Assembly (NCBI GenBank): GCA_023129075.1
Contig: JAGMCT010000003.1
Coordinates: 1 to 39,527, forward strand
Length of the DNA: 39,527 bases
Reading direction: 5' to 3'
From: Microcaldota archaeon
GTDB taxonomy: Archaea > Micrarchaeota > Micrarchaeia > Anstonellales > Bilamarchaeaceae
Position 1 is the first letter of the stretch; every line of letters starts with the position of its first letter. The position numbers and the translations under genes are program-made. The notes under the pieces were generated by a model, which ran no database searches, was not told the DNA's origin, and worked only from the letters and a program-made list of their open reading frames with translations. Of this stretch, positions 16,093-31,650 are shown one piece after another.

Positions 16093-16902
16093 ATGGATTT
16101 GAATGAAGAACTTTTGAGAGCTGCTAAGGAAGGAGATGCGGAAGCAGTTGAACGGCTAATTCAAGAAGGAGCAGATATTAATACAAGGGATGACTGGGGT
16201 GAGACAGCTTTAACACATGCTATCGAGAATGGACATACAGAAACAGCCAAATTCCTTATAGAAAAAGGAGCAGATGTAAATGTAAAGGACTGGGAAGGAC
16301 GGACAGCACTAATACGGGCTGCTGAAAAAGGGTATACAGAAACAGCAAGATTTCTCATAGAAAAAGGAGCAGATATTAATACAAAGGACATCCTTGGTAA
16401 GACAGCACTAATACTGGCTGCTGAAAAAGGGCATACAGAAACAGCAGAATTTCTTATAGAAAAGGGAGCAGACATTAATACAAAGGACATCCTTGGTAAG
16501 ACAGCACTGATGTTGGCCGTAAGTAAAGGACATACAGAAACAGTCGAGTTCTTAATACAAAAAGGAGCAGATGTTGTTTCTGCATATAAAAAATATAACG
16601 CAAGAGAAACAATAAATCAACTTGCAAGAGAAAAACCAGAATTATTCACAAAAGAACAAAGATTTATATTTGAAATGTATTCTAATCCAAAGAAGTTTCC
16701 TCAAGATAAAAAGAAAGAAGTTATCAAGGTTCTAAGGGAATCCCAAAAGAAAGGAATAATATCAAAAATAGAATCATTGAAATTATTTACTAATCTTCAG
16801 GAAATATGGAACGAGAATACAAATATTAAGAGTAAAGAAATGAGAAAACCACTGAATAAACCAGATGGGAATAATCTGAAGAGAATAAACAGAGTGATGT
16901 AA
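16093..16902 (+). CDS. Ankyrin-repeat protein with shared C-terminal domain and RKP tail (5 repeats)
   Basis: The 269-aa protein has about five ankyrin repeats (residues 1-160) with the consensus GxTALxxAxxxGHTETAxFLIEKGADINxKD. A non-ankyrin region follows (about 165-250), shared with the proteins at 16902 and 21030: ETINQLAREKPELFTKEQ, MYSNPKKFPQDKKKEV, ESLKLFTNLQEIWNEN. The end is MRKPLNKPDGNNLKRI. Repeats 3 and 4 are nearly identical in DNA. No signal peptide or membrane helix is present, so the protein is probably cytoplasmic. Ankyrin repeats normally bind other proteins; the partner is unknown. Its TAA overlaps the next ATG in TAATG, so the pair is translationally coupled. Confidence 0.9.
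   Translation: MDLNEELLRAAKEGDAEAVERLIQEGADINTRDDWGETALTHAIENGHTETAKFLIEKGADVNVKDWEGRTALIRAAEKGYTETARFLIEKGADINTKDILGKTALILAAEKGHTETAEFLIEKGADINTKDILGKTALMLAVSKGHTETVEFLIQKGADVVSAYKKYNARETINQLAREKPELFTKEQRFIFEMYSNPKKFPQDKKKEVIKVLRESQKKGIISKIESLKLFTNLQEIWNENTNIKSKEMRKPLNKPDGNNLKRINRVM
16351..16550 (+). repeat. Tandem 99-bp repeat inside the first ankyrin gene
   Basis: The 30 bases starting at 16381 (beginning ACAAAGGACATCCTTGGTAA) recur at 16480 with exact sequence, 99 bp apart. The flanks also align closely, with GAAAAAGGAGCAGATATTAA matching GAAAAGGGAGCAGACATTAA. This equals one 33-residue ankyrin repeat and marks a recent in-frame unit duplication. Confidence 0.8.
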
Positions 16903-17507
16903 TGAATTTGAATGAAAAACTGCTGAAAGCTTCTAAGAAAGGAGATACAGAAGAAGTTGAATTACTACTAAAAAAAGGAGCAGATATAAATGCAAAAGAC
17001 GTGAATGGTAAGACAGCACTAATGTGGGCTGCTGGGTATGGACCAATAGAAATAGCTGAATTACTAATAGAAAAAGGAGCGGATGTAAATGCAAGGAATG
17101 AATATGGTCAGACTGCACTTATGTGGGCTACAATGTATGGACATAAAAAAATAGTTGAATTACTAATACAAAAAGGAGTAGATGTTTTTTATGCATATAA
17201 ACATAATGATGCAAGAGAAACAATAAATCAACTTGCAGGAGAAAAACCAGAATTATTTACAGAAGAACAGAAACTTATGTTTGAAATGTATTCTAATCCA
17301 GAGAATATCTCTCTGGATAGAAGAAAAGAAGTGCTTAAACTACTTAGAAAATTCCAAAAGAAAGGCTCAATATCAAAAACAGAATCATTGGAATTATTTA
17401 CTAATCTTCAGGAAATATGGAACGAGAATACAAATATTAAGAGTAAAGAAATGAGAAAACCAGAGAAGAAACCAGATAAAAACAAGATAAGGAAAGCAAT
17501 TCAATAA
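16902..17507 (+). CDS. Ankyrin-repeat protein with shared C-terminal domain and RKP tail (3 repeats)
   Basis: This 201-aa paralogue of the previous protein starts with MNLNEKLLKASKKGDTEEVE, has three ankyrin repeats (GKTALMWAAGYG, GQTALMWATMYGH), and then the same C-terminal domain. ARETINQLAGEKPELFTEEQ, MFEMYSNPEN and SLELFTNLQEIWNENTNIKS are nearly identical to the first protein. It ends MRKPEKKPDKNKIRKAIQ. The difference in repeat number with a constant C-terminal half suggests a fixed functional end and a variable recognition part (inference). The start lies in the TAATG overlap. Confidence 0.88.
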   Translation: MNLNEKLLKASKKGDTEEVELLLKKGADINAKDVNGKTALMWAAGYGPIEIAELLIEKGADVNARNEYGQTALMWATMYGHKKIVELLIQKGVDVFYAYKHNDARETINQLAGEKPELFTEEQKLMFEMYSNPENISLDRRKEVLKLLRKFQKKGSISKTESLELFTNLQEIWNENTNIKSKEMRKPEKKPDKNKIRKAIQ

Positions 17508-17604
17508 ATTCCTTTTCCAAGAAGAAAATCCACAGCGTTTAAATATTTCTTTTTAAAGGTTCGCATTACACTGCGCACTTTTAGGCTTTTCTACGCATTA
17601 CAAT
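17508..17604. other. Convergent spacer with a TATA-like box and a direct repeat
   Basis: This 97-bp spacer separates the convergent ankyrin and helicase genes. It contains GTTTAAATA and two exact copies of CGCATTACA (17562-17570 and 17594-17602). A short TGCG/CGCA pair lies between and around them. I cannot fold it into a tRNA. It may be termination sequence or a small transcript; evidence is weak. Confidence 0.3.
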
Positions 17605-19797
17605 CTAAACTGAACACCAATCCTTTACTCTTTTGCTTATCTCTTTTGCGCTATCCTTATGCAGATAATAATTATCATTTCCGCACTGCGAGTCCAGTAT
17701 ACACTTGGGGCACCCACTCTCACATTCACAGTTCTTGAGCCTCTCATAACTCATTCTTGCAATCCTTGAAAAATTAGAATAAATAATATCAGAAATCCCG
17801 TTCCCTTCCTCCATTCCTTCATATACATACATCCTTCCGGAAGGATAGCTTATTCCTCCTACCTCTTTTTGGTCCCCTCCGCTCACCGCAGGGCTCATTG
17901 AAATGAATACATGCTCAAACCCGTGGATTCCCCCCTGGAAATCCTCCACATCAAAGGAAAAAGGGTCAATATCCATCCACAATGCATAGGTATCATATTC
18001 ATATACATACGGCTCCTCAAAATTCTGATTTCCAATCCTTGTTCCCCTGAATACATCCTTTACTACAAATCCTGAAACGCTGTCCCTTATATGAATTTTC
18101 CCATAGGATAATGCAATCTCCCCCATCTCCTTGTGCTTTTTCTCTTCCAATACTTCTGCTTCCCTCTCTCTTACAGGCTGTGTATATGCCTCAACATTAT
18201 CCCCTACTAGTTCCACATATGCAACCCCATTCTCCAAATCCAGTCCTTTTGAAACAAACGCCCTCCCCCCATGCAGGTATATCGCCCCTTCAAAAAGCTC
18301 CCCAATGGCCATTGCAATATCCCTTTGCCCTATCTGCTTCTGCGTTCCTGCATCAAGAATACGAATATTTTTTCCACCGCTTCTTATATTCAATTTATGT
18401 ATCCTTCTTGCTCCTTCAATACTCACAGAATAAAAATAACCCCATCTCTTCATCAGCCCTTCTTCTTCCAATTCCTTAACAATTTCCTCCCATCCATTCT
18501 CTTCTATTTCCTCTTTGGTAAGCATCAGGTCTTTTGCAGAAGAAAGTACATGCCATTTTAGAATATGCCCATTCCCAGGATTTACATAACAGCTCTCAGG
18601 CTCCCCATGCAGATATTCCTCTTCATTTTCATAGTAATACATATCCAAAGGACTCTCCCTCGCGATAAACACCCCATAAGCCTCCTGTCCTTTTCTCCCG
18701 CATCTCCCTATCCTTTGCTCAACCTTTGTAATACTTCCAGGAAACCCTGCCAGTATAACAGCATCCACATCCCCCATATCCATTCCCAGCTCAAGTGCAG
18801 AAGTAGTTGCCATTACTGCATTCCTATTTTTTTTGAATTCCTGCTCAAGCTTTTCCCTATTCTTATAAGTTAATCCTGCTCTGTAAACCATCACAGGAAT
18901 GTCCATTCCCTTTCCCATAAGCCCGAGCCGCTCAACCACAGAATGCGAATTTCCGAATATAAGGGTTTTCACCCCAAGCTCTTCTGCAACTCTCAGAGAA
19001 GTGGTGGTGTAGCTCTCTGTTTCCGGATTAATAAGAACATGCTCTACTTTTCCTCTGCTTCCTCCTGCTCCTTTCACCTCTTCAAAAGCTTCCCCAAAAA
19101 GCTTTTCACAGAATCCCCCTGCGTTCATTACAGTTGCAGAGGTTGCAATAAACTGCAATTTTCTCTTAAACCTATTTTTCAAAAGCCTTTTTAATCTCAT
19201 TACTATATTTGCAGAATGGGCTCCAAGCGTCCCGCTGTAGGTGTGTATTTCATCCACAACCACCAACCCCAATTTACTCAGGAATTCCTCAAACAATCTA
19301 TTATTCAACAAAATATGGTGAAGCATATCCATATTCGTTATCAAAACCTGGGGAGGATTTTCCCTTATCTTCTTTCTTTTGTGCTGAGGCACATCTCCGT
19401 CATAAATCTCTGCTCTTATTCCATACAGCCTGAACGGTTCAAACCTTTTCAGCTGGTCTCTTTCCAGAGCCTTTGTAGGGTAAAGCAAAAGTACTGTTTT
19501 TCCTTCTACTGCTTTTTCCACTATTGCAGAAAGGAATATCTCGCTCTTTCCGCTTGCAGTTGGTGCTGTAATCACCACGTTCTTCCCTTTTTTTACTTTT
19601 TTAATTCCTTCAGCCTGATGCTTGTATAATTTTTCTATTCCAATTTGGGAAAATACGCTCTTTACAATAGGATTCAGTCCTACCTCTCCATATTTTATTC
19701 TCTGGTTTCTCTTAAATGCCCTCTTCGGGCTAAATTGCTCAAGCATTTTTCCCCATTTTTTTCTAATATGGAATCCTTTTAAAATAAAAGGAGACAC
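17605..19797 (-). CDS. DEAD/DEAH-box helicase with C-terminal DUF1998 cysteine cluster
   Basis: The 730-aa protein is a superfamily 2 helicase: HQAEGI (Q-like), Walker A APTASGKSE (Lys84), TKALERDQ, DEIH at about 182-185, motif III TSATV, and helicase C motifs ATTSALELGMD and QRIGRCGRKGQ. The C-terminal region ends with the cysteine cluster CECESGCPKC plus DSQC, typical of DUF1998 and of the MrfA/YprA-like DNA-repair helicases. That family translocates 3'-5' on DNA, so a role in DNA repair is likely. The frame starts at GTG 19797, which sits in a GAGGTG sequence. The ATG at 19746 (MLEQFSPKRA) is a plausible alternative start. It interrupts the ankyrin/HEAT island on the opposite strand. Confidence 0.9.
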   Translation of the reverse strand: MSPFILKGFHIRKKWGKMLEQFSPKRAFKRNQRIKYGEVGLNPIVKSVFSQIGIEKLYKHQAEGIKKVKKGKNVVITAPTASGKSEIFLSAIVEKAVEGKTVLLLYPTKALERDQLKRFEPFRLYGIRAEIYDGDVPQHKRKKIRENPPQVLITNMDMLHHILLNNRLFEEFLSKLGLVVVDEIHTYSGTLGAHSANIVMRLKRLLKNRFKRKLQFIATSATVMNAGGFCEKLFGEAFEEVKGAGGSRGKVEHVLINPETESYTTTSLRVAEELGVKTLIFGNSHSVVERLGLMGKGMDIPVMVYRAGLTYKNREKLEQEFKKNRNAVMATTSALELGMDMGDVDAVILAGFPGSITKVEQRIGRCGRKGQEAYGVFIARESPLDMYYYENEEEYLHGEPESCYVNPGNGHILKWHVLSSAKDLMLTKEEIEENGWEEIVKELEEEGLMKRWGYFYSVSIEGARRIHKLNIRSGGKNIRILDAGTQKQIGQRDIAMAIGELFEGAIYLHGGRAFVSKGLDLENGVAYVELVGDNVEAYTQPVREREAEVLEEKKHKEMGEIALSYGKIHIRDSVSGFVVKDVFRGTRIGNQNFEEPYVYEYDTYALWMDIDPFSFDVEDFQGGIHGFEHVFISMSPAVSGGDQKEVGGISYPSGRMYVYEGMEEGNGISDIIYSNFSRIARMSYERLKNCECESGCPKCILDSQCGNDNYYLHKDSAKEISKRVKDWCSV

Positions 19798-19886
19798 CTC
19801 ATTTCCGGTGTTTCCGTTATATTCGTTGTAATAAACAGAAGGTTTAAATACATTTGTTGCAATAAATCTATTGGAGTGTTAAAAGT

Positions 19887-21029
19887 ATGGAAGAGAAAAC
19901 AAGGTTTAGAACATTTGCGGAGAAAAATCTCCCCTTTCTTACTGGAATTTATGATTACATTGAAGAAAAAACTGAAGAAAGAAGAATTGAGAGACGAATC
20001 CTTGCAGAGGAAGTAAGAACAAATTTATTTGTTAAAAGTAAGATGCACGAGCTTTTTGATGAGAACAAAAACGAAATGGCCATCCATGGTTTGGAGAAGG
20101 TCGCCAAGGAAGGTAAGGATATTTCGATAGCTGTTCCCTCCCTTTTGAAAGTCATTTTTTCAACTAAAATTAAGAATGCCCATGTAAAAGCAGGTTCTGC
20201 AAGAGCTTTGGCCAAAGCTGCTAAAAATGAGAAAAACAGGCAGTTTATCGTTGACCAAATCATTGAGAAAATATCTCCTGATGGAGATACGAAAAACTGG
20301 GGAAGTATGTCTTGTGCACTCTCATTTCTTTCTCATGCTATTAATCAAGATATTGATATTTCCATTGCTTTCCCCAAGTTAAATAATCTGCTTCTTGACA
20401 AATATTGGGCCAATTTATATGCTTCTGGAGATGATTTCAATATCAAAATGAAAGCAATTGATCTTTTTCGGCGTGCTGCCATAAACGGAATTGACATCTC
20501 CACCTCGTTTCCGGTATTTTTGAATTTACTCGTTACTGGAGATGGGGAAACATATAATACAGACTATAGCAGGAGGACAATCACAAGGGTTTTGAGAGAG
20601 GCAGCAGAAACAGGTGCAGACATCTCTCTCGTTATTCCCAAACTTATTGAATTTCTTGGAGAGCGAGATCCAGATCTAACAAAAGATGCTAAGGAAGCTT
20701 TAGCATATGCAGTTACAAATGAAAAAACAAGAGAACTGACATTAAGGTTGCTTGTAGAGTCAATGGCGGCTCATGATAATAACATACGACTTGGAAATGT
20801 TTTTAGCACTCTTGAGATTTCTGCTGAAAACTGCAAAAGCAAGAAAGAACTAGTGCAATTTCTAAGGAGGATGGGTGGTTCTTTGGAAGTAAAGGAATTA
20901 GCAAAGAAAATCTACAATGAATGGATGGATAAGCAGAACAAAAAAATAGAATTGCAGAGACCTGAAATGAGAAAACCACAGAAGAAACCTAATAGGAATA
21001 ACCTGAAAAGAATGGAAGGAATGGTTTAG
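19887..21029 (+). CDS. HEAT-like repeat protein with RKP tail
   Basis: This 380-aa, almost wholly helical protein has a degenerate repeat with the signature GxDISxxxPxLxxLL at least four times: GKDISIAVPSLLKVI (about residue 77), DIDISIAFPKLNNLL (about 155), GIDISTSFPVFLNLL (about 200) and GADISLVIPKLIEFL (about 243). Helices such as ARALAKAAKNEKNR and KEALAYAVTNEKTR lie between them. This resembles HEAT/armadillo solenoids, which bind proteins. It ends IYNEWMDKQ, then ELQRPEMRKPQKKPNRNN and LKRMEG, the same tail as the ankyrin proteins. No signal peptide is seen. The next gene begins immediately after its stop codon, so HEAT and ankyrin proteins are co-translated. A TTTAAATA box at 19843-19850 and a GGAGTG site precede the ATG. 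Confidence 0.85.
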   Translation: MEEKTRFRTFAEKNLPFLTGIYDYIEEKTEERRIERRILAEEVRTNLFVKSKMHELFDENKNEMAIHGLEKVAKEGKDISIAVPSLLKVIFSTKIKNAHVKAGSARALAKAAKNEKNRQFIVDQIIEKISPDGDTKNWGSMSCALSFLSHAINQDIDISIAFPKLNNLLLDKYWANLYASGDDFNIKMKAIDLFRRAAINGIDISTSFPVFLNLLVTGDGETYNTDYSRRTITRVLREAAETGADISLVIPKLIEFLGERDPDLTKDAKEALAYAVTNEKTRELTLRLLVESMAAHDNNIRLGNVFSTLEISAENCKSKKELVQFLRRMGGSLEVKELAKKIYNEWMDKQNKKIELQRPEMRKPQKKPNRNNLKRMEGMV

Positions 21030-21536
21030 ATGGATTTGAATGGAAAACTGCTGAAAGCTGCTGAGAAAGGAGATACAAGAGAGGTTGAACGGTTAATACA
21101 AGAAGGAGTAGATATAGATGCAAAAGATAATTATGGTTGGACAGCACTACTACTGGCTGCTAAGGAAGGACATACAAAAACAGCTGAACTATTGATAGAA
21201 AAAGGAGCAGATGTTATTTACGCATATAAACATTATAGTGCAAAAACAACAATAAACCAAATAGCAGAAGAAAAACCAGAGTTATTTACAGAAAAAGAGA
21301 AACTCATGTTTGATTTGTATTCTAATCCAGAAAAGATTCCTCAAGATAAAAAGAAAGAAGTAATTGAAGCTTTAAGAGAATCCCAAAAGAAAGGTTCAAT
21401 AACAAAAGAACAATCATTACAATTATTTACTAATCTTCAGAAAATATGGAATGAGAATACAGATATTAGGAGTAAGGAACTGAGAAAACCAAGAAATATA
21501 AGAAATCAGAATAGAATAAAGAGAATAGTAAACTAA
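21030..21536 (+). CDS. Ankyrin-repeat protein with shared C-terminal domain and RKP tail (2 repeats)
   Basis: The 168-aa protein is the shortest of the three ankyrin paralogues. It has two repeats (MDLNGKLLKAAEKGDTREVE; GWTALLLAAKEGHTKTAELL), then the common C-terminal domain (TINQIAEEKPELFTEKEK, MFDLYSNPEKIPQDKKKEV, LFTNLQKIWNENTDIRSK) and the tail LRKPRNIRNQNRIKRIVN. It begins at the base after the HEAT gene's stop and has no own ribosome-binding site, so its translation probably depends on the HEAT gene. That coupling suggests the two products act together (inference). Confidence 0.87.
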   Translation: MDLNGKLLKAAEKGDTREVERLIQEGVDIDAKDNYGWTALLLAAKEGHTKTAELLIEKGADVIYAYKHYSAKTTINQIAEEKPELFTEKEKLMFDLYSNPEKIPQDKKKEVIEALRESQKKGSITKEQSLQLFTNLQKIWNENTDIRSKELRKPRNIRNQNRIKRIVN

Positions 21537-21585
21537 TCAAAGAAAAGAAAAAGCTTTTAAACTGTTTCCCATATTCTATAACTTA

Positions 21586-22047
21586 ATGGAGAAAATCAAA
21601 ACCCTCCAAACTCGTGCTCTTGGATGGACCCAGGAAAAACACATGTCCCTTAAATTTCTCTTTATGCGAAAGTCAAAGAAAGAAGACCTTCTCTCAAAAG
21701 CAAAACATCTTCACGTTATTGCAAAAACTGCCAAGGAAATATGGAAAAATGGAATATGGAAAGATATAATAGATGAAGAAAGACCAACCATGGGCTTCCA
21801 CACAGGACAGATATCTTTTTATCGTGCAATTCTTGATGAAACTCAAAAAGAAGACATGTCTCCGGATACCTTGGACCACCTCTCAAACCTCTTAAACAAT
21901 AAAGAAAAGATTCTTGAGCATATCAAAAAAAGAGAACTCCCAAAAGAAATAAAAATACTAAAAGAAGAATACCACGAACCGGATGTTCTTATTGCCTATT
22001 TTAAGAAGTACTGCTCAAAAGAAACTGAGAAAGAAGAAAGCTCTTAA
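21586..22047 (+). CDS. Unknown helical protein
   Basis: I do not recognise this 153-aa protein. It is charged and mostly helical, with LLSKAKHLHVIAKTAKEIW, a central MGFHTGQISFYRAIL, LDHLSNLLNNKEKILEH and a Lys/Glu-rich end. It has no signal peptide, and it does not carry the tail module of the neighbouring repeat proteins. A CTTTTAAAC box centred about 27 nt before the ATG suggests its own leaderless promoter. One base separates it from the convergent L15e gene. Confidence 0.7.
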   Translation: MEKIKTLQTRALGWTQEKHMSLKFLFMRKSKKEDLLSKAKHLHVIAKTAKEIWKNGIWKDIIDEERPTMGFHTGQISFYRAILDETQKEDMSPDTLDHLSNLLNNKEKILEHIKKRELPKEIKILKEEYHEPDVLIAYFKKYCSKETEKEESS

Positions 22048-22048
22048 T

Positions 22049-22597
22049 CTATTTGCTGATTCCTTTCTTCATTCTTTCCTTTTTCTTTGACCTTCTCCTC
22101 ACTTTCTTTTTTCCTTTTGCCCTTAAGCCTCTGCCCTTTTGCCCTGAACTGCTTAATCCTCTATACACTCTTCCCTTTCCGAGGTTAAGGTCCAGGATGC
22201 TCAAATCCACAAGTATTACCTCGTAGAATTTATTTCTTCCATCCTCCCCTACCCAATAGGAGTTCAGCACTTCAAGATTAGGATATTCCCTATTAACTTT
22301 CTGTTCTGCTATTGTCTGATGGCTCATGTCCGGGGATTTAATCAGATAATTCTTTGAAGGCTTTCTTCCACCCTTTGGCTTTCTTCTTCTCCTGTTTCCT
22401 TTTCCAATCCTTGTTCTTACAACAACATAACCCTGTTTTGCTTTATATCCAAGTTCTCTTGCTCTTGTAACATTGGTTGGTTTTACACGAAGAATTACGA
22501 GCTCGCCTCTCCATTCCACAAGCCTTTGTTTATAGATATCGTCCCTTTCCTTTCTTGTTTGTTCAAAGTTCTGTTTAATATACTTATATGCACCCAT
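22049..22597 (-). CDS. rpl15e: Large ribosomal subunit protein L15e
   Basis: This is a structural protein of the 50S subunit found in archaea and eukaryotes and absent from bacteria. The 182-aa length and sequence are typical: GAYKYIKQNF, RLVEWRGELVILRVKPTNVT, RARELGYKAKQGYVVVR, KGNRRRRKPKGGRKP, REYPNLEVLNSYWVGEDGR, FYEVILVD and RGLSSSGQKGRGLRAKGKK. A long basic C-terminus contacts rRNA. It is transcribed divergently from the ATP synthase operon. The TATA element TTTTTAAAATAA at 22673-22662 would give a leader of about 45 nt. Confidence 0.97.
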   Translation of the reverse strand: MGAYKYIKQNFEQTRKERDDIYKQRLVEWRGELVILRVKPTNVTRARELGYKAKQGYVVVRTRIGKGNRRRRKPKGGRKPSKNYLIKSPDMSHQTIAEQKVNREYPNLEVLNSYWVGEDGRNKFYEVILVDLSILDLNLGKGRVYRGLSSSGQKGRGLRAKGKKKVRRRSKKKERMKKGISK

Positions 22598-22661
22598 TCT
22601 AAAACCTCGCTCTATTCAGGGAACTACTCCCACATCTTGAGCATTCCCTTATAACATACGG

Positions 22662-22695
22662 TTATTTTAAAAACCTTTTTATTTATGCTTTAAAC
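22662..22695. promoter_or_regulatory. Divergent promoters of rpl15e and the ATP synthase operon
   Basis: On the minus strand TTTTTAAAATAA (22673-22662) lies upstream of rpl15e. On the plus strand CTTTAAAC (22688-22695) is centred about 24 nt before the ATG at 22715, fitting a nearly leaderless start of the first ATPase gene. Confidence 0.5.
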
Positions 22696-22714
22696 TCCAA
22701 GGCAGGGTTGTTAT

Positions 22715-23035
22715 ATGAAAAGTTCCTTTATGAATGTTGTGGGAGAGGTAAAGGAAGCAGAAAAAAAAGCCAATATTATAGAGGAAGACGCAGAGATAGA
22801 AGCCGAAAGAGTAATAAAAGAAGGAAAAGAGCAGGCTTCTGAAATAATTTTTGATGCTGAAAAAGAAGCTCTTAATGTAAGAAATAATATTATAAAAAGG
22901 GGAGAGAAAACAATAAACAATGAAGTAAAAAAGATAATAGACAAGGTGGAAAAGGAATCACAAAAAATAAAAAAACTCAATCTGACTCCAAAGCAAAGGG
23001 AGAAGGTGTTCAAAGAATTCGTTTCCTCAGTGTGA
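22715..23035 (+). CDS. ahaH: A-type ATP synthase subunit H
   Basis: The 106-aa protein is a single long charged helix (for example EVKEAEKKANIIEEDAEIEA). It matches the small coiled-coil subunit H, which pairs with subunit E to form the peripheral stalks of the archaeal A1Ao ATP synthase. Identification rests on helix character, length and position as first gene of the operon before subunit I. The next gene starts 4 nt after its stop. Confidence 0.85.
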   Translation: MKSSFMNVVGEVKEAEKKANIIEEDAEIEAERVIKEGKEQASEIIFDAEKEALNVRNNIIKRGEKTINNEVKKIIDKVEKESQKIKKLNLTPKQREKVFKEFVSSV

Positions 23036-23039
23036 GCAT

Positions 23040-24914
23040 ATGTTAAGGCCAGTTGAAATGCAGAAGGTTAATATGGCCGTTCCCAAATCTCTTCTAAATA
23101 ATATACTCAAAAAGATACATTCCCTTGGATTGATAGAAATAAGAAGGTTCAAGCAGGAATTTCCTGCAGGAAAAACCGTTGAATTATACGACGGGGTTGC
23201 TTCTCAGGTTGTAAGGCTTAGAAGATTAAAAAGACTATTGAGAATAAAAACCAGAAAATCTGTTGAGCTTGAACTGAACGAAGCGCTGAAGAGATCTGAA
23301 AAACTTTCTTTTGATTCCACTCTTGAATCCTACCACCATGAACTCAGGAGATACAAAAAGGAGCAGGCTTCACTTGAATATAGGTTGAGGCGCACTCTTG
23401 AAATTCTTTTTCTTGGAGATGTTGATCTCTCGCAGATGCAGACTGAAAAATTGGAATTCCATGTTGGAAAGATACCAAAGCAAAAACTTACTCAATTAAG
23501 AAAATATCTCCAGGAAAACCATCCTGAAAATTATGAACTAAAATTTCATGCTCTTAAGGATGAAACTGTTATTGCGCTCTTATCCAAAAAGGAAGCCTTT
23601 GACGGGAGTTTTGCACTCTCAAGATTCGGCTTCACAGAAATAAATACCGAGGGTTTTACAACCCCCCAGAAGACAGCAAAGCAGATAAGGGCAAAGATAT
23701 CCGAAAGAAAAGAGAAGATAAAAAAAATAAATGAAAAACTTTTTCATATTGCTGATGATTACAGGGAGGAACTGCTGGTTCTGGAAGGGGCGCTTTCTTT
23801 GTGGGCCGATAGGTTGAACCTCACAAAGGAATTTGGAATGAGTGAAAGAACAGCATTCATTACGGGTTGGGTAGTTTCTTCAAAGTATGAAAAGTTCAAA
23901 ACAGCACTTGAAAAGGAATTCGAAGGCTCTATTTTCATCCAGAAGGCCGAAGCGGACGAAGAATCGCCGGTGGTTCTTGATAATCCAGAGGTAGCAAGTC
24001 AGTTTCAGTTTCTTGTTGAACTATTTTCCCTGCCAAAACCCGGAGAGATAGACCCCACCATTATACTATTTTTTACAATACCAATAATATACGGCATGAT
24101 GTTCGGTGATGTTTTTTATGGTATAATCTCATTTATTTTTGCAACATTTCTTTACACAAAGTTCAAGAAAGGAATGATGCATGAGATTGCAAGGATATGG
24201 GCGCTCTCAGGGATTGCGGGAATTATTTTTGGAATTGCTTTTGATGAATGGCTGGGAACATCGCATTTTGCTTTCCTTAATTTATTTGCAAACCTGGGTT
24301 GGTTGAGTCCTGTTGCAGGGCCCCTTTACGACGGCTTCAGCAGGTCCCATGGACTGCCCCTGCTCATTGTTGCCTCCATTTTTATCGGCCTTATACATCT
24401 TGCACTTGGTTTCCTTCTTGGTGCAATAAATGAATGGCACCACAATAGAAAACATGCTTATGCAAAACTCTCATGGATTTTTTTTGAACTTGGTGCTTTC
24501 CTTACGATTGCAACCTACATGTATAACCTCTTCCCTGAAGCAGTAGGGTTTGCAGGAGCAATCATTCTTGGGGTTTCATTCATACTTATTGCAGTCTTTG
24601 AAGGATTGATAGGGATAGTTGAAATACCAAGTTTACTCGGGAATGTTCTTTCCTATGCAAGGATTGCTGCCGTAGGGCTTGCAGGCGTGATGATTGCAGA
24701 GGTTATCAATGAGGCACTGTTCCCTACAGGGGCAGGCGGAATTCTTGGAGTGCTTTTAGTACTTCCATTATTGCTCTTTTTGCACTTTTTAAACATTTTA
24801 TTGGCAATGGTAGAATGCATCATACAAGGCGGACGTCTCAATCTTGTGGAATTCTACTCAAAATTCTTCCAGGGTGGAGGAAGGGTTTTTGTTCCTTTTA
24901 AAATAGAAAAATAG
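23040..24914 (+). CDS. atpI: A-type ATP synthase subunit I (membrane stator subunit a)
   Basis: Subunit I carries the half-channels for ion flow next to the c-ring and anchors the peripheral stalks. The 624-aa protein has a soluble N-terminal half with helical hairpins (about 1-330). A membrane half follows with roughly seven to eight segments, starting at DPTIILFFTIPIIYGMMFGD. The essential Arg of the channel is in SYARIAAVGLAGVMIAEV near residue 540, and an acidic ALVECI-like segment (LLAMVECIIQGGRLN) follows. The C-terminus FVPFKIEK is typical. Its TAG stop is fused to the GTGA ribosome-binding site of subunit K. Confidence 0.95.
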   Translation: MLRPVEMQKVNMAVPKSLLNNILKKIHSLGLIEIRRFKQEFPAGKTVELYDGVASQVVRLRRLKRLLRIKTRKSVELELNEALKRSEKLSFDSTLESYHHELRRYKKEQASLEYRLRRTLEILFLGDVDLSQMQTEKLEFHVGKIPKQKLTQLRKYLQENHPENYELKFHALKDETVIALLSKKEAFDGSFALSRFGFTEINTEGFTTPQKTAKQIRAKISERKEKIKKINEKLFHIADDYREELLVLEGALSLWADRLNLTKEFGMSERTAFITGWVVSSKYEKFKTALEKEFEGSIFIQKAEADEESPVVLDNPEVASQFQFLVELFSLPKPGEIDPTIILFFTIPIIYGMMFGDVFYGIISFIFATFLYTKFKKGMMHEIARIWALSGIAGIIFGIAFDEWLGTSHFAFLNLFANLGWLSPVAGPLYDGFSRSHGLPLLIVASIFIGLIHLALGFLLGAINEWHHNRKHAYAKLSWIFFELGAFLTIATYMYNLFPEAVGFAGAIILGVSFILIAVFEGLIGIVEIPSLLGNVLSYARIAAVGLAGVMIAEVINEALFPTGAGGILGVLLVLPLLLFLHFLNILLAMVECIIQGGRLNLVEFYSKFFQGGGRVFVPFKIEK

Positions 24915-24922
24915 GTGAAAAT

Positions 24923-25147
24923 ATGGATATAGAAGCAACTGGTTTGATTGCAATTAGTGCAGGTATCGCAATGGGTCTTGCAGCCCTTGGTACTGGATGG
25001 GCACAAGCGTCCATCGGTTCAAGTGCTATGGGAACCCTTGCCGAGAGGCCGGAAGAGTTTACAAAACTCCTGATATTCCTGGCTTTGCCGGAGACTATCG
25101 TAATTCTGGGTTTCGTAATTGCTATTATGCTTACCGGAAAGGTATAG
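24923..25147 (+). CDS. atpK: A-type ATP synthase subunit K (c-ring)
   Basis: This 74-aa protein is one helical hairpin with two transmembrane segments (IAISAGIAMGLAALGTGWA and LIFLALPETIVILGFVIAIM) and a polar loop GTLAERPEEF. The Glu in LPETIVI is the ion-carrying carboxylate of the rotor ring. One carboxylate per hairpin indicates a standard, non-duplicated c subunit. No Na+-binding residue set can be assigned with confidence, so the coupling ion is not determined. GGTGA precedes the ATG by five bases. Confidence 0.95.
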   Translation: MDIEATGLIAISAGIAMGLAALGTGWAQASIGSSAMGTLAERPEEFTKLLIFLALPETIVILGFVIAIMLTGKV

Positions 25148-25156
25148 GTGAGGTTA

Positions 25157-25717
25157 ATGGAAGTAAATGACCTTACCTCCACTATCATCAGCGATGCAAA
25201 GAAGCAGAAGGAAAGAATTGTTTCAGGAGCGAAAAAGGAAAAGAAAACAATAATTTCTGATGCAGAAAAGAAAGCAGAGATTTTCATTAAGGAAGCGGAC
25301 AAGGAAGCAGGGATATTCATCCAGAATCAGCGACTTGAGAAGATTGCAGGTGCAAGGCTTGAGGCAAAGAAATTTCTTTCAGAGGCAAAGGAAGATACCC
25401 TCAACAACGAGCGGGATGAAATCTTCAAGCGTTTTCCCCAATTTAAGAAAACCAGAGAATATGCAAAGATAGTAAACGAACTGGCAAAGAGAGCAGTAAA
25501 GGAAATAGGAGGTCCAACAATCCTTCATATTAGCAAAGGGGAAAAGAAATTCTACAAGGGAATAAAAGCAGCAATAAAAGAGGACCTTCTGGGAGCCACA
25601 GGTTTTATTGCAGAATCCAAGAATGGAAGGGTGAAGGTGGACTGCACCTTTGAAACACTGTTTCGGGACAAAAGAGAGGAGATGAGGAAAAGAATCGCTG
25701 AGTTTCTTTTCAAGTGA
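25157..25717 (+). CDS. atpE: A-type ATP synthase subunit E (peripheral stalk)
   Basis: Subunit E forms the peripheral stalk with subunit H and caps the A3B3 head. The 186-aa protein has a long charged N-terminal helix (LTSTIISDAKKQKERIVSGA onward, to about residue 90) and a compact C-terminal domain (GFIAESKNGRVKVDCTFETL) as in the family. A longer frame begins with GTG at 25148, but that GTG is part of the GGTGAGG ribosome-binding site, so I use the ATG at 25157. Confidence 0.92.
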   Translation: MEVNDLTSTIISDAKKQKERIVSGAKKEKKTIISDAEKKAEIFIKEADKEAGIFIQNQRLEKIAGARLEAKKFLSEAKEDTLNNERDEIFKRFPQFKKTREYAKIVNELAKRAVKEIGGPTILHISKGEKKFYKGIKAAIKEDLLGATGFIAESKNGRVKVDCTFETLFRDKREEMRKRIAEFLFK

Positions 25718-25729
25718 GGTATATACACT

Positions 25730-26812
25730 ATGGGTTTCAATCCGTTTTACAGCCGTGCACTCGTTTATGGGTATTCCAATGCCAGGGTTAAAGCTAGAAA
25801 GGCTATGCTCCTTTCAAAGACCTTTCTTGAAGACCTTGCTTCCCAGAGAACGATAGATGCAATGATTGAGATGCTGCAGAGGACAAGATATAAGGATTCA
25901 ATAGGGCGATTTTCAGGGAGTGTAAAGGGTGCAGACCTTATAGAGCTTGCTGCAGGAGCAGATTATGCAGAGGTTGCTGAAAAGGTTTTTTCTTTTGCAC
26001 CTGAAGACGCAAAGGATGTAATAAAAGCAGTACTCGGGAAATGGGACATCCACAACCTCAAGACAATCATCGCCTTCAAGAGAATTTCTTCAAAATGGGA
26101 AAAGGCAAGATCATATATGATTCCTGCAGGAACACTCAGGCTCCATCAACTGGAAAGGATATTCAAAGCAGAGCCCGGAGAGATTTATAATGTTATAAGA
26201 AAAACAAGGGCAGGAAGAGAGATTCTTGGACACTCCAGCGAAATTATAAGGGGAACAGAACTGGAAAAGAGATTTATGAGTGCAGTAAAGGATGCAAGCG
26301 TTCTTTCTCAACTGCAGGTTATTCTTGACGCCAGTATGTATGAATTCCTTAACAAGCCCATCTCATCCGACTCGGATATGATTGCACTGCGCAAGATAAT
26401 CCGCCTTACAATAGATGCAAAAAATCTCATTAATATCATGCGTTTGAAAAAACATAATGTCACTGATGAAGAAACGCTTAGAAAATATATAATAAGGGGA
26501 GGAACATTCAATAATAAAATGATACATGATATGATTACTGCAGAAGGGCTTGAGAATACCTTCAAGGTTGTGAAGAGAATATTCCCTGTAGAATTCAGCA
26601 AGGACGAGGTCCTTTCAGACCTTGAGTCCAAGCTTGATAAGGTTATTGCAAGAAAAAGAATTACATTTTTCTACAGAAGCAACCTTTCGCTCGGAACCCT
26701 CGTGGGTTTCCTTTTTGTAAAGGAAGAGGAAATGAATAATTTAAGAAAGATTGCAAGGGCAAGGGAAGGCAACCTCTCCGAAGAGGAGGTAAAAAAGATG
26801 CTTATAGTCTAG
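25730..26812 (+). CDS. atpC: A-type ATP synthase subunit C
   Basis: Subunit C (equivalent to V-ATPase subunit d) is the funnel-shaped adaptor joining the central shaft to the c-ring. The 360-aa protein shows the family start YSRALVYGYSNARVKARKAM, the middle segment WDIHNLKTIIAFKRIS, later DAKNLINIMRLKKH, and a C-terminal GTLVGFLFVKEEEMNNLRKI that is highly typical. It lies between E and F in the expected order. Its TAG stop overlaps the GTGGG ribosome-binding site of subunit F. Confidence 0.93.
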   Translation: MGFNPFYSRALVYGYSNARVKARKAMLLSKTFLEDLASQRTIDAMIEMLQRTRYKDSIGRFSGSVKGADLIELAAGADYAEVAEKVFSFAPEDAKDVIKAVLGKWDIHNLKTIIAFKRISSKWEKARSYMIPAGTLRLHQLERIFKAEPGEIYNVIRKTRAGREILGHSSEIIRGTELEKRFMSAVKDASVLSQLQVILDASMYEFLNKPISSDSDMIALRKIIRLTIDAKNLINIMRLKKHNVTDEETLRKYIIRGGTFNNKMIHDMITAEGLENTFKVVKRIFPVEFSKDEVLSDLESKLDKVIARKRITFFYRSNLSLGTLVGFLFVKEEEMNNLRKIARAREGNLSEEEVKKMLIV

Positions 26813-26824
26813 GTGGGAAAGATT

Positions 26825-27151
26825 ATGGACGAGAGGATAGCAGTTATCGGCGATGCAAGCCTTTGTTTCGGTTTTAGGATTATCGGTCTTGAAAGGACAT
26901 TTATAGTTGAAAAAGGCAGGGAATTCGAGAGTACAATAGAGAAAATAATCTCTGAACAAGAATACGGCATAGTTGTAGTAAACCAGCTTTACCTCCAGGA
27001 TATAGACTGGAGATTAAAGAAAAAACTTGACAACCTCGCTCATCCAGTAGTAATCCCTGTTCCGGACTCTTCAGGAGCCAAGGAAACAGGAGAGGACCTG
27101 AATGCCCTTATAAAGAGGGCTTTAGGTTTTGATATTAGTAAAAAGAAATAA
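26825..27151 (+). CDS. atpF: A-type ATP synthase subunit F
   Basis: Subunit F is a small central-shaft subunit that regulates rotation. The 108-aa protein has ERIAVIGDASLCFGFRIIGL, then YGIVVVNQLYLQD, and VIPVPDSSG, matching the family's Rossmann-like domain and its C-terminal helix. A longer frame starts with GTG at 26813, directly after the TAG of subunit C. That GTG belongs to the AGGTGG ribosome-binding site, so I take the ATG at 26825. Confidence 0.92.
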   Translation: MDERIAVIGDASLCFGFRIIGLERTFIVEKGREFESTIEKIISEQEYGIVVVNQLYLQDIDWRLKKKLDNLAHPVVIPVPDSSGAKETGEDLNALIKRALGFDISKKK

Positions 27152-27163
27152 TGGTGATATAGA

Positions 27164-28912
27164 ATGAAGGGAAAACTTTCAAGAATCTCAGGACCTGTTG
27201 TTGTTGCAAAAGGTATTGAAGATGCAAAGCTTTACGATGTCGTAAGGGTAGGAGAGGAAAAACTCGTCGGTGAAATAATCAAGATTGTCGGAAACGAATC
27301 TGTTATTCAGGTTTACGAGGATACAAGCGGTCTTCAGCCCGGAGAAAGGGTTGTTTCCACAGGAGAGCCCCTTTCGGTTGAGCTCGGACCAGGCATTCTC
27401 AAGAGCTTTTACGATGGTGTCCAAAGACCTCTGCAGGGAATAGAAAAGGTAGCAGGCTCATTCATCACAAGAGGAATAGATGTACCTGCACTTGACAGGA
27501 AGAAGAAATGGGAGTTCAAACCCTTAGTGAAAAAAGGTCAGAAGATAAAACATGGGGATGTTCTTGGAGAAGTCCAGGAAACAGAGATCATTACCCACAG
27601 GATTCTCTCTCCTTATTCAGGAACCCTGAAGAGCATAAAAGCAGGAAAATACACTGTTGAGGATGTTATAGGAACCCTTGACACAGGAAGAGGAAAGAAA
27701 CACGACCTTAAACTATACCACAGGTGGTTCGTTCGGAAGCCCCGTCCGTATTCAGAGAAATTCCCTCCAGTTATTCCCCTGCTCACCGGAATGAGAATTA
27801 TTGATACATTTGCACCAATCGCAAAGGGAGGAACAGCTTCTATTCCAGGCCCCTTCGGGAGCGGAAAGACGGTCACCCAGCAGTCCCTTGCAAAGTGGTC
27901 TGATGCCCAGATTGTTGTTTACATCGGCTGCGGGGAAAGAGGAAACGAGATGACAGAGGTGCTTAAGGAGTTTCCCAAATTAATAGACCCAAAATCCGGA
28001 AAGCCTTTGATGGAAAGAACGGTTCTTATTGCAAATACTTCAAATATGCCTGTTGCTGCAAGGGAGGCAAGCATCTACACAGGTATTACTCTTGCAGAAT
28101 ATTACCGCGACATGGGATATGATGTTTCCCTTATGGCAGATTCTACTTCAAGGTGGGCAGAAGCCCTCAGAGAGATTTCAGGAAGGCTTGAGGAGATGCC
28201 AGGAGAAGAGGGCTACCCAGCCTACCTTGCAAGAAAGCTCGCAGAATTTTACGAGAGAGCAGGAAGAGTAAAAACCCTGGGCACAAACCCAAGAGAAGGA
28301 AGCATAACCGTTATAGGAGCCATCTCACCTCCAGGAGGAGACATCTCAGAACCGGTTTCGCAGAACACCCTGCGTGTTACAAAGGTTTTCCTTGGACTTG
28401 ATGCTTCTCTTGCGCATAGAAGACACTTCCCTGCAATCCACTGGCTCAAGAGCTATTCTCTTTATATAGAAGCGCTTGACCCGTATTATAAAGAAAAAAT
28501 CTCTGCAGAATGGCCTTCTCTAAGAGATGAGGCAATGAAACTCCTGCAGAAGGAAGCAGAATTACAGGAGATTGTTCAGCTTGTCGGTCCGGATGCCCTT
28601 CCGGAGAAGGAGCAGGCAGTTCTTGTTGTAACAAAAATGCTAAGGGAAGACTACCTTCAGCAGTCTGCTTTCCATGAGGTTGACACCTTCTCAAGCATGG
28701 AGAAGCAATACCTTATGCTCAAGAATATTATGCATTACTATGAAAGGATAATGGACGCAGTTGAAAAGGGCGTCCAGCTGAGTTTTCTTACTTCTCTTAA
28801 GGTTATGGAAAAAATCGCAAGGATGAAGGAGATTCCGGAAACAAAGATGAAGGATATCAAATCAATTTACGAGGAGATAGATGCTCAATTTGAGGAGGCC
28901 ATTAAAAGGTGA
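27164..28912 (+). CDS. atpA: A-type ATP synthase catalytic subunit A
   Basis: Subunit A hydrolyses or synthesises ATP in the A3B3 head. The 582-aa protein has the Walker [13 protein letters not shown], a catalytic Glu region [13 protein letters not shown], and [20 protein letters not shown]. It also has the non-homologous insertion typical of the A/V type between the N-terminal barrel and Walker A (about residues 120-185). [20 protein letters not shown] is typical as well. There is no intein. GGTGAT precedes the ATG. Its stop codon overlaps the ribosome-binding site of subunit B. Confidence 0.98.
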
Positions 28913-28917
28913 TTATT

Positions 28918-30294
28918 ATGAAAGAATATAAAACAGTAAGCCAGATTGCCGGTCCGTTGATTTTTGTTGATGATGTTTCAGGCGTAGGATATAATGAACT
29001 TGTGGAGATTATCCTTCCAAGCGGAGAAAGAGGAAAAGGCCAGGTTCTTGACATCAGCGAAAAAACAGCAGTTGTACAGGTATTTGGTTCAACCTCAGGT
29101 CTGAGCACAACAGGAACCTCGGTAAAATTCCTTGGAGAGTCTCTGAGACTCGGAGTAAGCGAGGATATGCTCGGAAGGGTATTCACAGGCCTTGGGGAGC
29201 CCAGGGATAAAGGTCCAAAGCCCATTGCCGAAGAGCGCCTGGACATTAATGGTGCACCTATCAACCCTTACTCAAGAGATGAGCCAAGGGATTTCATCCA
29301 GACAGGTATCTCAACAATTGATGCAATGAACACGCTTGTTAGGGGACAAAAACTCCCAATCTTTTCTGCCTCAGGTTTGCCGCATAACCAGCTTGCGGTT
29401 CAAATCGCCCGCCAGTCCAAAACAAAAGACCAAAAGGAGGATTTTGCAGTAATATTTGCAGCCGTAGGTATTACTCACGAAGAGGCATCATTCTTTATGC
29501 GTGATTTTGAGAAAACAGGAGCTCTTGAAAGAGCAGTGCTTTTCCTTAATCTTGCAGACGACCCTTCAGTTGAGCGTCTTATTACACCGCGTCTGGCTCT
29601 TACTACAGCAGAATACCTTGCTTTTGAAAAGGATATGCACGTCCTCGTTATTATCACAGACATGACCAACTACTGCGAAGCCCTTCGTGAAATCGCTTCA
29701 GCACGTCAGGAAGTGCCTGGAAGAAGAGGATATCCCGGCTACATGTACACCGACCTCTCCACCATCTATGAGAGAGCAGGAAGGATAAAAGGAAAGAAAG
29801 GAACGATTACACAGTTTCCGATTCTTACAATGCCAGGAGATGATATCACACATCCTATTCCTGACCTTACAGGATATATTACAGAAGGCCAGATTGTACT
29901 GAGCAGGGATTTGCACAAAAAGAATATTTCTCCTCCTGTTGACCCGCTTCCTTCTCTTTCCAGGTTAATGAACCTTGGTATAGGAAAGGAAAGAACAAGG
30001 GAGGACCATAGAGGATTAGCAGACCAGCTTTATGCAGGCTATGCAACCGGCCGGGACCTGAGAAGCCTGAGCGCTGTCGTTGGAGAGGAATCCCTCAGTA
30101 ATGTGGACAGGAAATACCTCAAGTTTGCTGATGAATTTGAAAAGAGATTTATTACGCAGGCCTCAAATGAAGACAGGTCTATTGAACAGACTATGGACCT
30201 TGGATGGGAATTGCTTTCAGCACTGCCTGAAACAGAACTAAAGAGAATAAAGAAAGAATACATTGAGAAATACGGAAAGAAATTCAGGAAATAG
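28918..30294 (+). CDS. atpB: A-type ATP synthase subunit B (non-catalytic)
   Basis: Subunit B alternates with subunit A in the head and contributes the arginine side of the active site. The 458-aa protein shows [43 protein letters not shown] in place of a Walker A motif, [20 protein letters not shown] and [22 protein letters not shown], all typical. The longest frame begins at GTG 28909, which is within the AGGTGATT ribosome-binding site, so I use the ATG at 28918. TAGGTGA follows the stop and another GGTGA precedes subunit D. Confidence 0.97.
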
Positions 30295-30317
30295 GTGAAA
30301 ATAATAGGTGAGAATTA

Positions 30318-30962
30318 ATGGCAGAGGAAAACCCAAACCCCACAAGGATGGAACTCCTTAAGATAAAGGCAAGGATAGTGCTTGCTGAAAAAGGGCACAA
30401 CCTACTTAAGCAGAAGAGGGACGCCCTTATAATGGAGTTCTTCAAAATCCTTGAAAAGGCCAAGGACCTACGTGGAGAACTTAATGAAAAGATGAAGTTT
30501 GCCTATGAAAAACTCTATATTGCACAGGCATACCACTCTGCCCATGAGCTTGCCTCTATTTCTGCCTCTCTTAAAAAAGACCTCCACCTTACAGTAAAGG
30601 TAAGGAATGTCATGGGTGTGCAGATTCCTGATATAAAATCCGAGCTTGAGGAAAGAAGCTATCTTGAGAAGGGCTACTCTATTATAGGTTCCTCTGCAAG
30701 AATAGACTCTGTTGTTGAGGCATTTGAAGATGTTTTCCAGCTGGTTCTTACTCTTGCAGAAACAGAAACCTCAATAAAAAGGCTTATACAGGAAATAGAA
30801 AAAACCAAGAGAAGGGTGAATGCGCTTGAATATGTTGTTCTTCCCCGCCTTGAAAGGCAGAAGAAAGACATTATCTTCCGTCTTGAAGAGATGGAAAGGG
30901 ATGCATTCGTAAGTCTTAAGGTAATTAAAAGAAAGCTTGAGGCCGAAGCCGCAGCTAACTAA
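30318..30962 (+). CDS. atpD: A-type ATP synthase subunit D (central shaft)
   Basis: Subunit D is the coiled-coil rotor axle. The 214-aa protein has long N- and C-terminal helices (KARIVLAEKGHNLLKQKRDA and TKRRVNALEYVVLPRLERQK) with a short central part (VQIPDIKSELEERSY), exactly as in the family. It is the last gene of the operon in the common archaeal order H-I-K-E-C-F-A-B-D. A short T-run (CCCTTTTTG) just after the stop may end the transcript. Confidence 0.96.
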   Translation: MAEENPNPTRMELLKIKARIVLAEKGHNLLKQKRDALIMEFFKILEKAKDLRGELNEKMKFAYEKLYIAQAYHSAHELASISASLKKDLHLTVKVRNVMGVQIPDIKSELEERSYLEKGYSIIGSSARIDSVVEAFEDVFQLVLTLAETETSIKRLIQEIEKTKRRVNALEYVVLPRLERQKKDIIFRLEEMERDAFVSLKVIKRKLEAEAAAN

Positions 30963-31017
30963 TCCCTTTTTGATATTCCTGCATAATTATAAATGAGCCG
31001 TGTTATTTAGTGATTGA

Positions 31018-31650
31018 ATGGAAAATTATAAAATAAAGGAGCTTGCCGAGAAATTATCGGATAAAGATGGCAGGGTTAGACTTAAAGCGTCCTGGGATTT
31101 AATGGTTGCTGCAGACAATGGTGCTGACATCTCCATTGTTTTTCCTGATCTTATAAAAGCATTTTTGGATAGGACTAGCGGCGTGAAAAATAATAGCATC
31201 CTGGCTTTAAAGAAAGCCGCCGTTGGAGGAGAGAGCACACTTAATGTTCTTCAGGAGTTTGTAAAAATGCTTTCTAATGCAGATGCAGATTTGAGATATC
31301 TGGCTGTTTTTGCTTTGAAAAACACTGCTGACGACGGCGTTGACATCTTTGTTGCAGTCCCAAAATTATTAGAATTGCGCAACGATGCAGACGATAATGT
31401 AAGAACGATTGTTCCTTTTGCTTTAAAATCAGCTGCCCGTTTTTTGGAACAAAGAATTTCAGGCACTGAAGATAAAAAAGAGGTTTTATCTATTTTGAGA
31501 AAGTTTAGTTTCGTTGGCAAAGAAGAAATGTTAATAATTTACAAGATTTGGTCTGCTGAACAGAATGAGAAAACAGGAGAACTGCAAAAACCCAACCTAA
31601 GAAAACCGCAAAAAAACCCAGCAAATAATTTAAGAAAAATCGTCTACTAA
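31018..31650 (+). CDS. Short HEAT-like repeat protein with RKP tail
   Basis: The 210-aa helical protein has HEAT-type units such as VRLKASWDLMVAADNGADIS, SILALKKAAVGGE and LRYLAVFALKNTADDGVD, with the signature GADISIVFPDLIKAF and GVDIFVAVPKLLELR shared with the protein at 19887. The C-terminus (IIYKIWSAEQNEKTGELQKP, then NLRKPQKNPANNLRKIV) matches the tails of that protein and the ankyrin proteins. A TTATAAAT box about 29 nt upstream suggests a near-leaderless mRNA. It lies 73 nt before the MoxR gene on the same strand, which has its own TATA box. Protein binding is the likely activity; the partner is unknown. Confidence 0.85.
   Translation: MENYKIKELAEKLSDKDGRVRLKASWDLMVAADNGADISIVFPDLIKAFLDRTSGVKNNSILALKKAAVGGESTLNVLQEFVKMLSNADADLRYLAVFALKNTADDGVDIFVAVPKLLELRNDADDNVRTIVPFALKSAARFLEQRISGTEDKKEVLSILRKFSFVGKEEMLIIYKIWSAEQNEKTGELQKPNLRKPQKNPANNLRKIVY

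What the first reader, a model, noticed from the sequence alone, without database searches (positions are those of the whole stretch)
16093..31650. One C-terminal tail module on five proteins of two different repeat classes
Seen: proteins at 16093, 16902 and 21030 (ankyrin) and at 19887 and 31018 (HEAT-like) all end in an IWxE or IYxxW helix, then MRKPxxKPxxNNLKRI or a close variant: MRKPLNKPDGNNLKRI, MRKPEKKPDKNKIRKAI, MRKPQKKPNRNNLKRM, LRKPRNIRNQNRIKRI, LRKPQKNPANNLRKIV. Known: ankyrin and HEAT folds are unrelated solenoids that bind proteins. Inference: a shared basic tail on unrelated binding domains suggests one common receptor, such as a sorting, docking or recruitment signal, with the repeats selecting targets. 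I know of no described family with this tail.
Basis: partly seen in the sequence, partly recalled or inferred. Interest (0 to 1): 0.82.

Follow-up and report, generated by a model that had tools for sequence, protein, structure and literature searches.

The report
Shared tail links repeat proteins, MoxR-VWA
One small symbiont-type archaeon carries at least 33 proteins, built on two unrelated repeat folds, that all end in the same C-terminal module, and related archaea show a similar arrangement beside a MoxR ATPase and a von Willebrand/metalloprotease-like protein, so the tails look like docking tags for that machine, a previously undescribed modular recruitment system.

Summary
The five tails belong to one ~60-residue C-terminal module (two helices plus a disordered basic end) found on 33 proteins of this ~1 Mb Micrarchaeota genome: 18 ankyrin, 15 HEAT. 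All lie within 3 residues of the C-terminus; the next-best hit is at E=0.14. No other of 301 Micrarchaeota genomes gives a true profile match.
Strong relatives of this VWA protein occur in only 7 of 301 genomes, beside HEAT genes. The arrays have their own C-terminal modules. Tail kinship mirrors VWA kinship (G000-G040; G059-G037), and two clusters in one genome have different tails. This points to a cluster-encoded receptor, the MoxR-VWA pair, rather than general sorting or secretion machinery. Docking itself is inferred, not shown; co-inheritance of an operon would give the same correlation, and a negative control did not separate tails from ordinary paralogy. Closest known kind: bacterial MoxR-vWA ternary conflict systems with effector-associated domains.

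The parts
16093..16902 (+). ankyrin protein, 269 aa; tail module 16711-16899
16902..17507 (+). ankyrin protein, 201 aa, 1-base overlap with the previous gene; tail module 17322-17504
19887..21029 (+). HEAT-like protein, 380 aa; tail module 20841-21026
21030..21536 (+). ankyrin protein, 168 aa; tail module 21351-21533
31018..31650 (+). HEAT protein, 210 aa, first gene of the MoxR-VWA run; tail module 31474-31647
31724..32773 (+). MoxR-type AAA+ ATPase (AAA_5), proposed motor of the tail-handling machine
   Evidence: homologue in the G040 HEAT operon
32793..35765 (+). 990-aa VWA protein with HExxH(H) zincin-like motif and MIDAS; proposed tail receptor
35862..36488 (+). 208-aa paralogue of the N-terminal part of the VWA protein (34% identity over 140 aa)

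Best explanation
The tail is a C-terminal docking tag. Shown: a two-helix plus disordered basic C-terminal module sits on 33 ankyrin or HEAT proteins, and HEAT arrays with cluster-specific C-terminal modules lie beside a MoxR AAA+ gene and a VWA/HExxH gene in several Micrarchaeota. Inferred: the VWA protein (MIDAS, possibly with its zincin-like domain) captures the tail, MoxR uses ATP to remodel or release the tagged protein, and the variable ankyrin or HEAT solenoid selects the target. The cell thus deploys a repertoire of interchangeable target binders through one machine.
For: Tail on two unrelated folds, 33 copies, always terminal. Tailed HEAT gene, MoxR and VWA adjacent and co-directional in the window, and MoxR-VWA-12 tailed HEAT genes as one operon-like run in G040. 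In 301 genomes strong VWA hits occur only in G000, G037, G040, G045, G051, G059 and G087; HEAT repeat genes lie next to them. Among 84 order genomes the six VWA genomes have 13-39 HEAT_2 matches versus median 2 (p 6e-5; within the family p 3e-4). VWA tree pairs G000+G040 (100/99) and G059+G037 (100/100) are the pairs whose tails resemble each other (z 4.5/4.5 and 5.2/8.6; other pairs mostly near 0). G087 has two clusters with two different tails. HExxH and MIDAS DxSxS are present in all 15 VWAs checked. Known MoxR-vWA pairs capture an extended substrate peptide through the vWA site (PMC7159879). The most basic tails go with the most acidic VWAs (few, non-independent points).
Against: No binding was tested. 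Co-divergence and linkage could reflect an operon inherited as a unit. A leave-one-out control also recognised shared C-termini in repeat arrays without a strong VWA relative (G073, G044), where the end is a repeat itself. Several HEAT-rich genomes (G073, G027, G026, G043) have no detected VWA relative. In G000 most tail genes are far from MoxR-VWA. MIDAS ligands are usually acidic while this tail is basic.
Confidence: 0.5

Rival explanations
1. The tail is a secretion or cell-surface targeting signal that sends repeat proteins to a host cell, like C-terminal signals of type IV effectors.
For: Micrarchaeota are DPANN and thought to depend on hosts; ankyrin effectors with C-terminal signals are known in bacterial pathogens (own knowledge); the end is basic and disordered.
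Against: Two clusters in one genome have clearly different tails that follow their own VWA gene; related clusters have non-basic helical tails. No secretion genes were seen beside the tail genes that were read, but the genome was not searched for them.
Confidence: 0.15
2. The module is a C-terminal cap of a paralogous family, spread by duplication and one or two domain swaps, with no common partner.
For: The tail tree nearly separates ankyrin from HEAT with 2 label changes; tandem arrays show duplication; plain repeat arrays also share C-termini.
Against: The disordered end is conserved too; in G000 HEAT proteins the last 45 residues are more alike (0.41) than the region before (0.29) or the first 80 (0.27), also in G040, G087b and G045 (not G087a; no real difference in G000 ankyrin proteins); a cap for one fold need not be kept on another.
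Confidence: 0.22
3. The tail is a substrate site: the HExxH domain of the VWA protein cuts or degrades tailed proteins, so the tail is a degron or processing site rather than a docking tag.
For: HExxH plus a conserved N..(E/D)D.R(I/V)(D/E)-like stretch in the VWA family.
Against: Zinc binding and protease activity are untested; no cleavage site is evident.
Confidence: 0.1

Closest known systems
MoxR-vWA ternary conflict systems (VMAP and others) with effector-associated domains, Kaur et al. 2020, PMC7159879
   Same: MoxR AAA+ plus vWA core; many proteins in a genome share a small, mostly helical lineage-specific adaptor module; solenoid repeats occur in these systems.
   Different: No third core component such as VMAP found; the tail was not found on MoxR or the VWA, so homotypic coupling fails; partners are solenoids, not enzymatic effectors; VWA carries HExxH; DPANN archaea.
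RavA-ViaA, CbbQ-CbbO, NorQ-NorD type MoxR-VWA chaperones
   Same: Two-gene AAA+ and VWA unit thought to remodel a client.
   Different: Few fixed clients there (own knowledge); here an expanded, variable client or adaptor repertoire. No curated family of that kind is matched over its cut-off beyond the generic AAA_5 and VWA domains.
Ankyrin effectors of Legionella and other bacteria (Dot/Icm)
   Same: Multi-copy ankyrin proteins with C-terminal signals (own knowledge).
   Different: NCBIfam hits are only to the repeats, far below cut-off; tail also on HEAT proteins.

Membership tests
MoxR-vWA ternary conflict system (Kaur 2020) | adjacent MoxR AAA+ and vWA genes | tested here: met
MoxR-vWA ternary conflict system (Kaur 2020) | third core component (VMAP, beta-propeller, FtsH, iSTAND) | tested here: not met
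   no such gene recognised in the window run or the G040 run; HEAT proteins take that place
MoxR-vWA ternary conflict system (Kaur 2020) | EAD copy fused to a core component as well as to effectors | tested here: not met
   tail profiles do not match VWA or MoxR proteins
Dot/Icm-type ankyrin effector | match to a curated effector family over its cut-off | tested here: not met
   best effector model 89.5 bits versus cut-offs of 450-1400, repeats only
Known anti-phage defence system | PADLOC model match beyond generic repeats or AAA core | tested here: not met
   ankyrin repeats and weak generic AAA hits only
Zincin metalloprotease (VWA protein) | HExxH motif | tested here: met
   present in all 15 VWA proteins
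Zincin metalloprotease (VWA protein) | zincin fold, zinc binding and peptidase activity | not testable with these tools
   no model of the VWA protein was made; needs biochemistry

The most novel reading that the evidence does not exclude
Micrarchaeota own a modular recognition system in which an expanding repertoire of HEAT or ankyrin binders, each stamped with a cluster-specific C-terminal tag, is loaded onto a cognate MoxR-VWA-zincin machine; tag and receptor co-diverge, and one lineage has transferred the tag to a second fold and scattered it over the genome, possibly for immunity or host interaction.
Probability: 0.4. Interest if true: 0.87.

Novelty: new variant of a known kind. Interest (0 to 1): 0.73.

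Why it matters
DPANN archaea have tiny genomes, yet about 3% of the genes here (33 of roughly 1,000, inferred) carry this tag. That investment is unexplained, and a tag-plus-receptor pair gives a direct, cheap test. If right, it would be an archaeal counterpart of bacterial MoxR-vWA conflict systems in streamlined, presumably host-dependent cells.

Tried and rejected
A DNA pattern for the tail was too strict and missed even the known copies. Weak tail hits in G206, G112, G074 and G227 were chance: other proteins or wrong frames. A profile polluted with wrong-strand ORFs was discarded and rebuilt; plain hhalign of the G000 and G040 tails is not significant, so their homology rests on the shuffle tests. 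A DNA-level element was rejected: four-fold sites are no more alike in tails than upstream beyond a small difference in ankyrin proteins. AlphaFold was run on window proteins only, as its rule asks, so alignments were shallow and the VWA protein was not modelled. The leave-one-out 'shared tail' test did not separate tail arrays from plain repeat arrays. MoxR in viral contigs: none. AAA proteins near two other tail or ankyrin loci (C23, C21) look Cdc48-like and Lon-like, not MoxR (judged by sequence).

Full report
WHAT WAS CLAIMED AND WHETHER IT IS THERE. Pfam gives ankyrin for 16093, 16902 and 21030 and HEAT_2 (E 6e-6, slightly under cut-off) for 31018; 19887 has no HEAT hit of its own but aligns to 31018 over its length (E 2e-16). 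The shared stretch is about 60 residues, not 16-20.

HOW MANY AND WHERE. A profile of the five tails against the whole genome gives 33 matches at E <= 1.3e-8; the next is 0.14. All 32 complete ORFs end 0-3 residues after the module, and the copy truncated at a contig edge also ends there. The repeats before it are ankyrin in 18 and HEAT in 15 (several of the ankyrin ones and from the sequence). Other ankyrin proteins in the genome lack the tail (for example those on C12, C21, C3:17893, C5:41781 and the 2456-aa protein on C24), so it is not just how ankyrin proteins end here.

ANATOMY. AlphaFold on window proteins gives two confident helices at 204-219 and 225-249 of the 16093 protein (block pLDDT about 88-90), then a low-confidence end. 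In the 31018 protein helices 153-162 and 168-189 are followed by residues 188-210 with pLDDT under 50 (modest overall confidence, mean 69). So the module appears to be a two-helix hairpin plus a disordered basic peptide in both contexts. Four-fold synonymous sites differ little between tail (0.50 HEAT, 0.62 ankyrin) and the region upstream (0.57, 0.54), while HEAT-protein amino-acid identity is 0.44 in the tail against 0.23 upstream; the constraint is on protein. The last 3-4 residues (RVM, MVN) overlap an SD-like GGTGATG/GGTGAA before the next gene where some genes abut, so those residues may be shaped by translation.

DOMAIN SWAP. The tail tree separates ankyrin from HEAT tails with two label changes: an ankyrin protein (L034:18074-18844) with a HEAT-type tail, and 31018 beside the ankyrin tails (93/92; few columns, weak resolution).

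WHO ELSE HAS IT. The genome is a micrarchaeon, judged by its closest named A-ATPase relatives. In 301 genomes of its phylum the tail profile finds no true match outside this genome. However, G040, another genus of the family, has 12 tandem HEAT proteins ending in YxRW...EH...PPxRFRxP...R-rich tails. Their profile scores this genome's tails above shuffles (set mean 2.59 bits against -0.04, s.d. 0.42; highest shuffled set 0.82), chiefly the HEAT-type ones. This is weak but reciprocal similarity.

THE LINK TO MoxR-VWA. In G040 the array directly follows a MoxR gene and a VWA gene, 32% and 33% identical to window 31724 and 32793, and in the window these two directly follow the tailed HEAT gene 31018. 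A six-member VWA profile finds strong relatives in 7 of 301 genomes: G000, G037, G040, G045, G051, G059 and G087, the last with three copies. HEAT-repeat genes adjoin each one read: about 16 flank the VWA on G087:C22, five follow it on C27, and similar runs lie in G045, G059 and G037. G051 shows one neighbour and G087:C25 runs off its contig. More distant VWA-like genes in G074 and G080 adjoin ankyrin genes. Among 84 order genomes the six VWA genomes have 13-39 HEAT_2 matches against a median of 2. Forty-seven genomes reached by name, many of other archaeal phyla, gave only two that are evidently G040 and G087 themselves.

TAILS TRACK THE VWA. Arrays have their own C-terminal modules, for example G087:C22 'HDFGCRETEVLKPPEIPREFERLVLKDVPKAK' and G087:C27 'RPSGVREVSERPKDVTIERMFRGMASDVRQPK' within one genome. 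Cross-array tail similarity (z against shuffles) is 4.5/4.5 for G000-G040, 5.2/8.6 for G059-G037, 2.8/2.5 for the two G087 clusters and 1.9/2.4 for G045-G059; most other pairs are near zero, though a few one-way values reach 3-3.6. The VWA tree independently pairs G000+G040 (100/99) and G059+G037 (100/100) and joins G045 to the latter. In G000 HEAT, G040, G087b and G045 the tail is more alike than the region before it; not in G087a or G074, and hardly in G000 ankyrin, G059 and G037. These facts fit a tag read by a cluster-encoded receptor better than a tag for general cell machinery. They do not exclude simple co-inheritance of an operon.

LIMITS. A leave-one-out test also recognised C-termini in arrays without a strong VWA relative (G073, G044), where the protein ends in a repeat, so shared ends in tandem paralogues are not by themselves informative. 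Some HEAT-rich genomes lack a detectable VWA relative. Genome incompleteness (93% here) limits absence claims. The HEAT count and the VWA search use the same small set of related genomes, so the p-values ignore phylogeny. Nothing biochemical was tested.

MECHANISM. In known MoxR-vWA pairs the vWA domain captures an extended peptide of a substrate and MoxR transmits an ATP-driven change (PMC7159879). All 15 VWA proteins examined keep a MIDAS-like DxSxS and an HExxH motif (HExxH and DxSxS invariant in the six-way alignment). I therefore propose that the tail docks on the VWA protein, MoxR remodels or releases the complex, and the solenoid chooses the target. The genes are shown to be there; docking, remodelling, proteolysis and target choice are inferred.

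KNOWN OR NEW. The nearest described kind is the set of bacterial MoxR-vWA ternary conflict systems, where small effector-associated domains recruit many proteins to a core. It may work like them, but two defining features were tested and not met: no third core component recognised and no tail copy on the core. No Pfam or NCBIfam model covers the tail or the VWA N-terminus, PADLOC gives only generic hits, and no paper in the searched library was found to join these elements in Micrarchaeota. By matching coordinates and scores, G040 is probably isolate Zod_Metabat.1079 and G087 AlinenSediments_bin-3476.

Noticed in passing
window 32793-35765 and relatives: VWA protein family with an HExxH(H) motif and a conserved N..(E/D)D.R(I/V)(D/E)-like stretch, no Pfam N-terminal domain; looks like a VWA-zincin fusion not in the libraries searched.
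   Followed up: partly
window 35862-36488: Stand-alone paralogue of the N-terminal part of the VWA protein, next gene downstream of it.
   Followed up: partly
G074 loci L158-L168, L258:5576-6163: Ankyrin proteins of another Micrarchaeota family share a different C-terminal end (GxExFxxxFRECT); one lies beside a VWA-like gene.
   Followed up: partly
L034:361-7731 (G000 contig C24): A 2456-residue protein with many ankyrin repeats and a very basic end but no tail module.
   Followed up: no
L177:4618-8001 (G080): Large VWA-like protein with HExxH directly upstream of two ankyrin genes, in another family.
   Followed up: partly
window 16899-16905 and other gene junctions in L041, L044, L045, L038: Abutting tail genes end in codons that contain an SD-like GGTGATG or GGTGAA for the next gene, suggesting translational coupling.
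   Followed up: partly
window 22715-30962: A-type ATP synthase gene run directly followed by the tailed HEAT-MoxR-VWA run.
   Followed up: no
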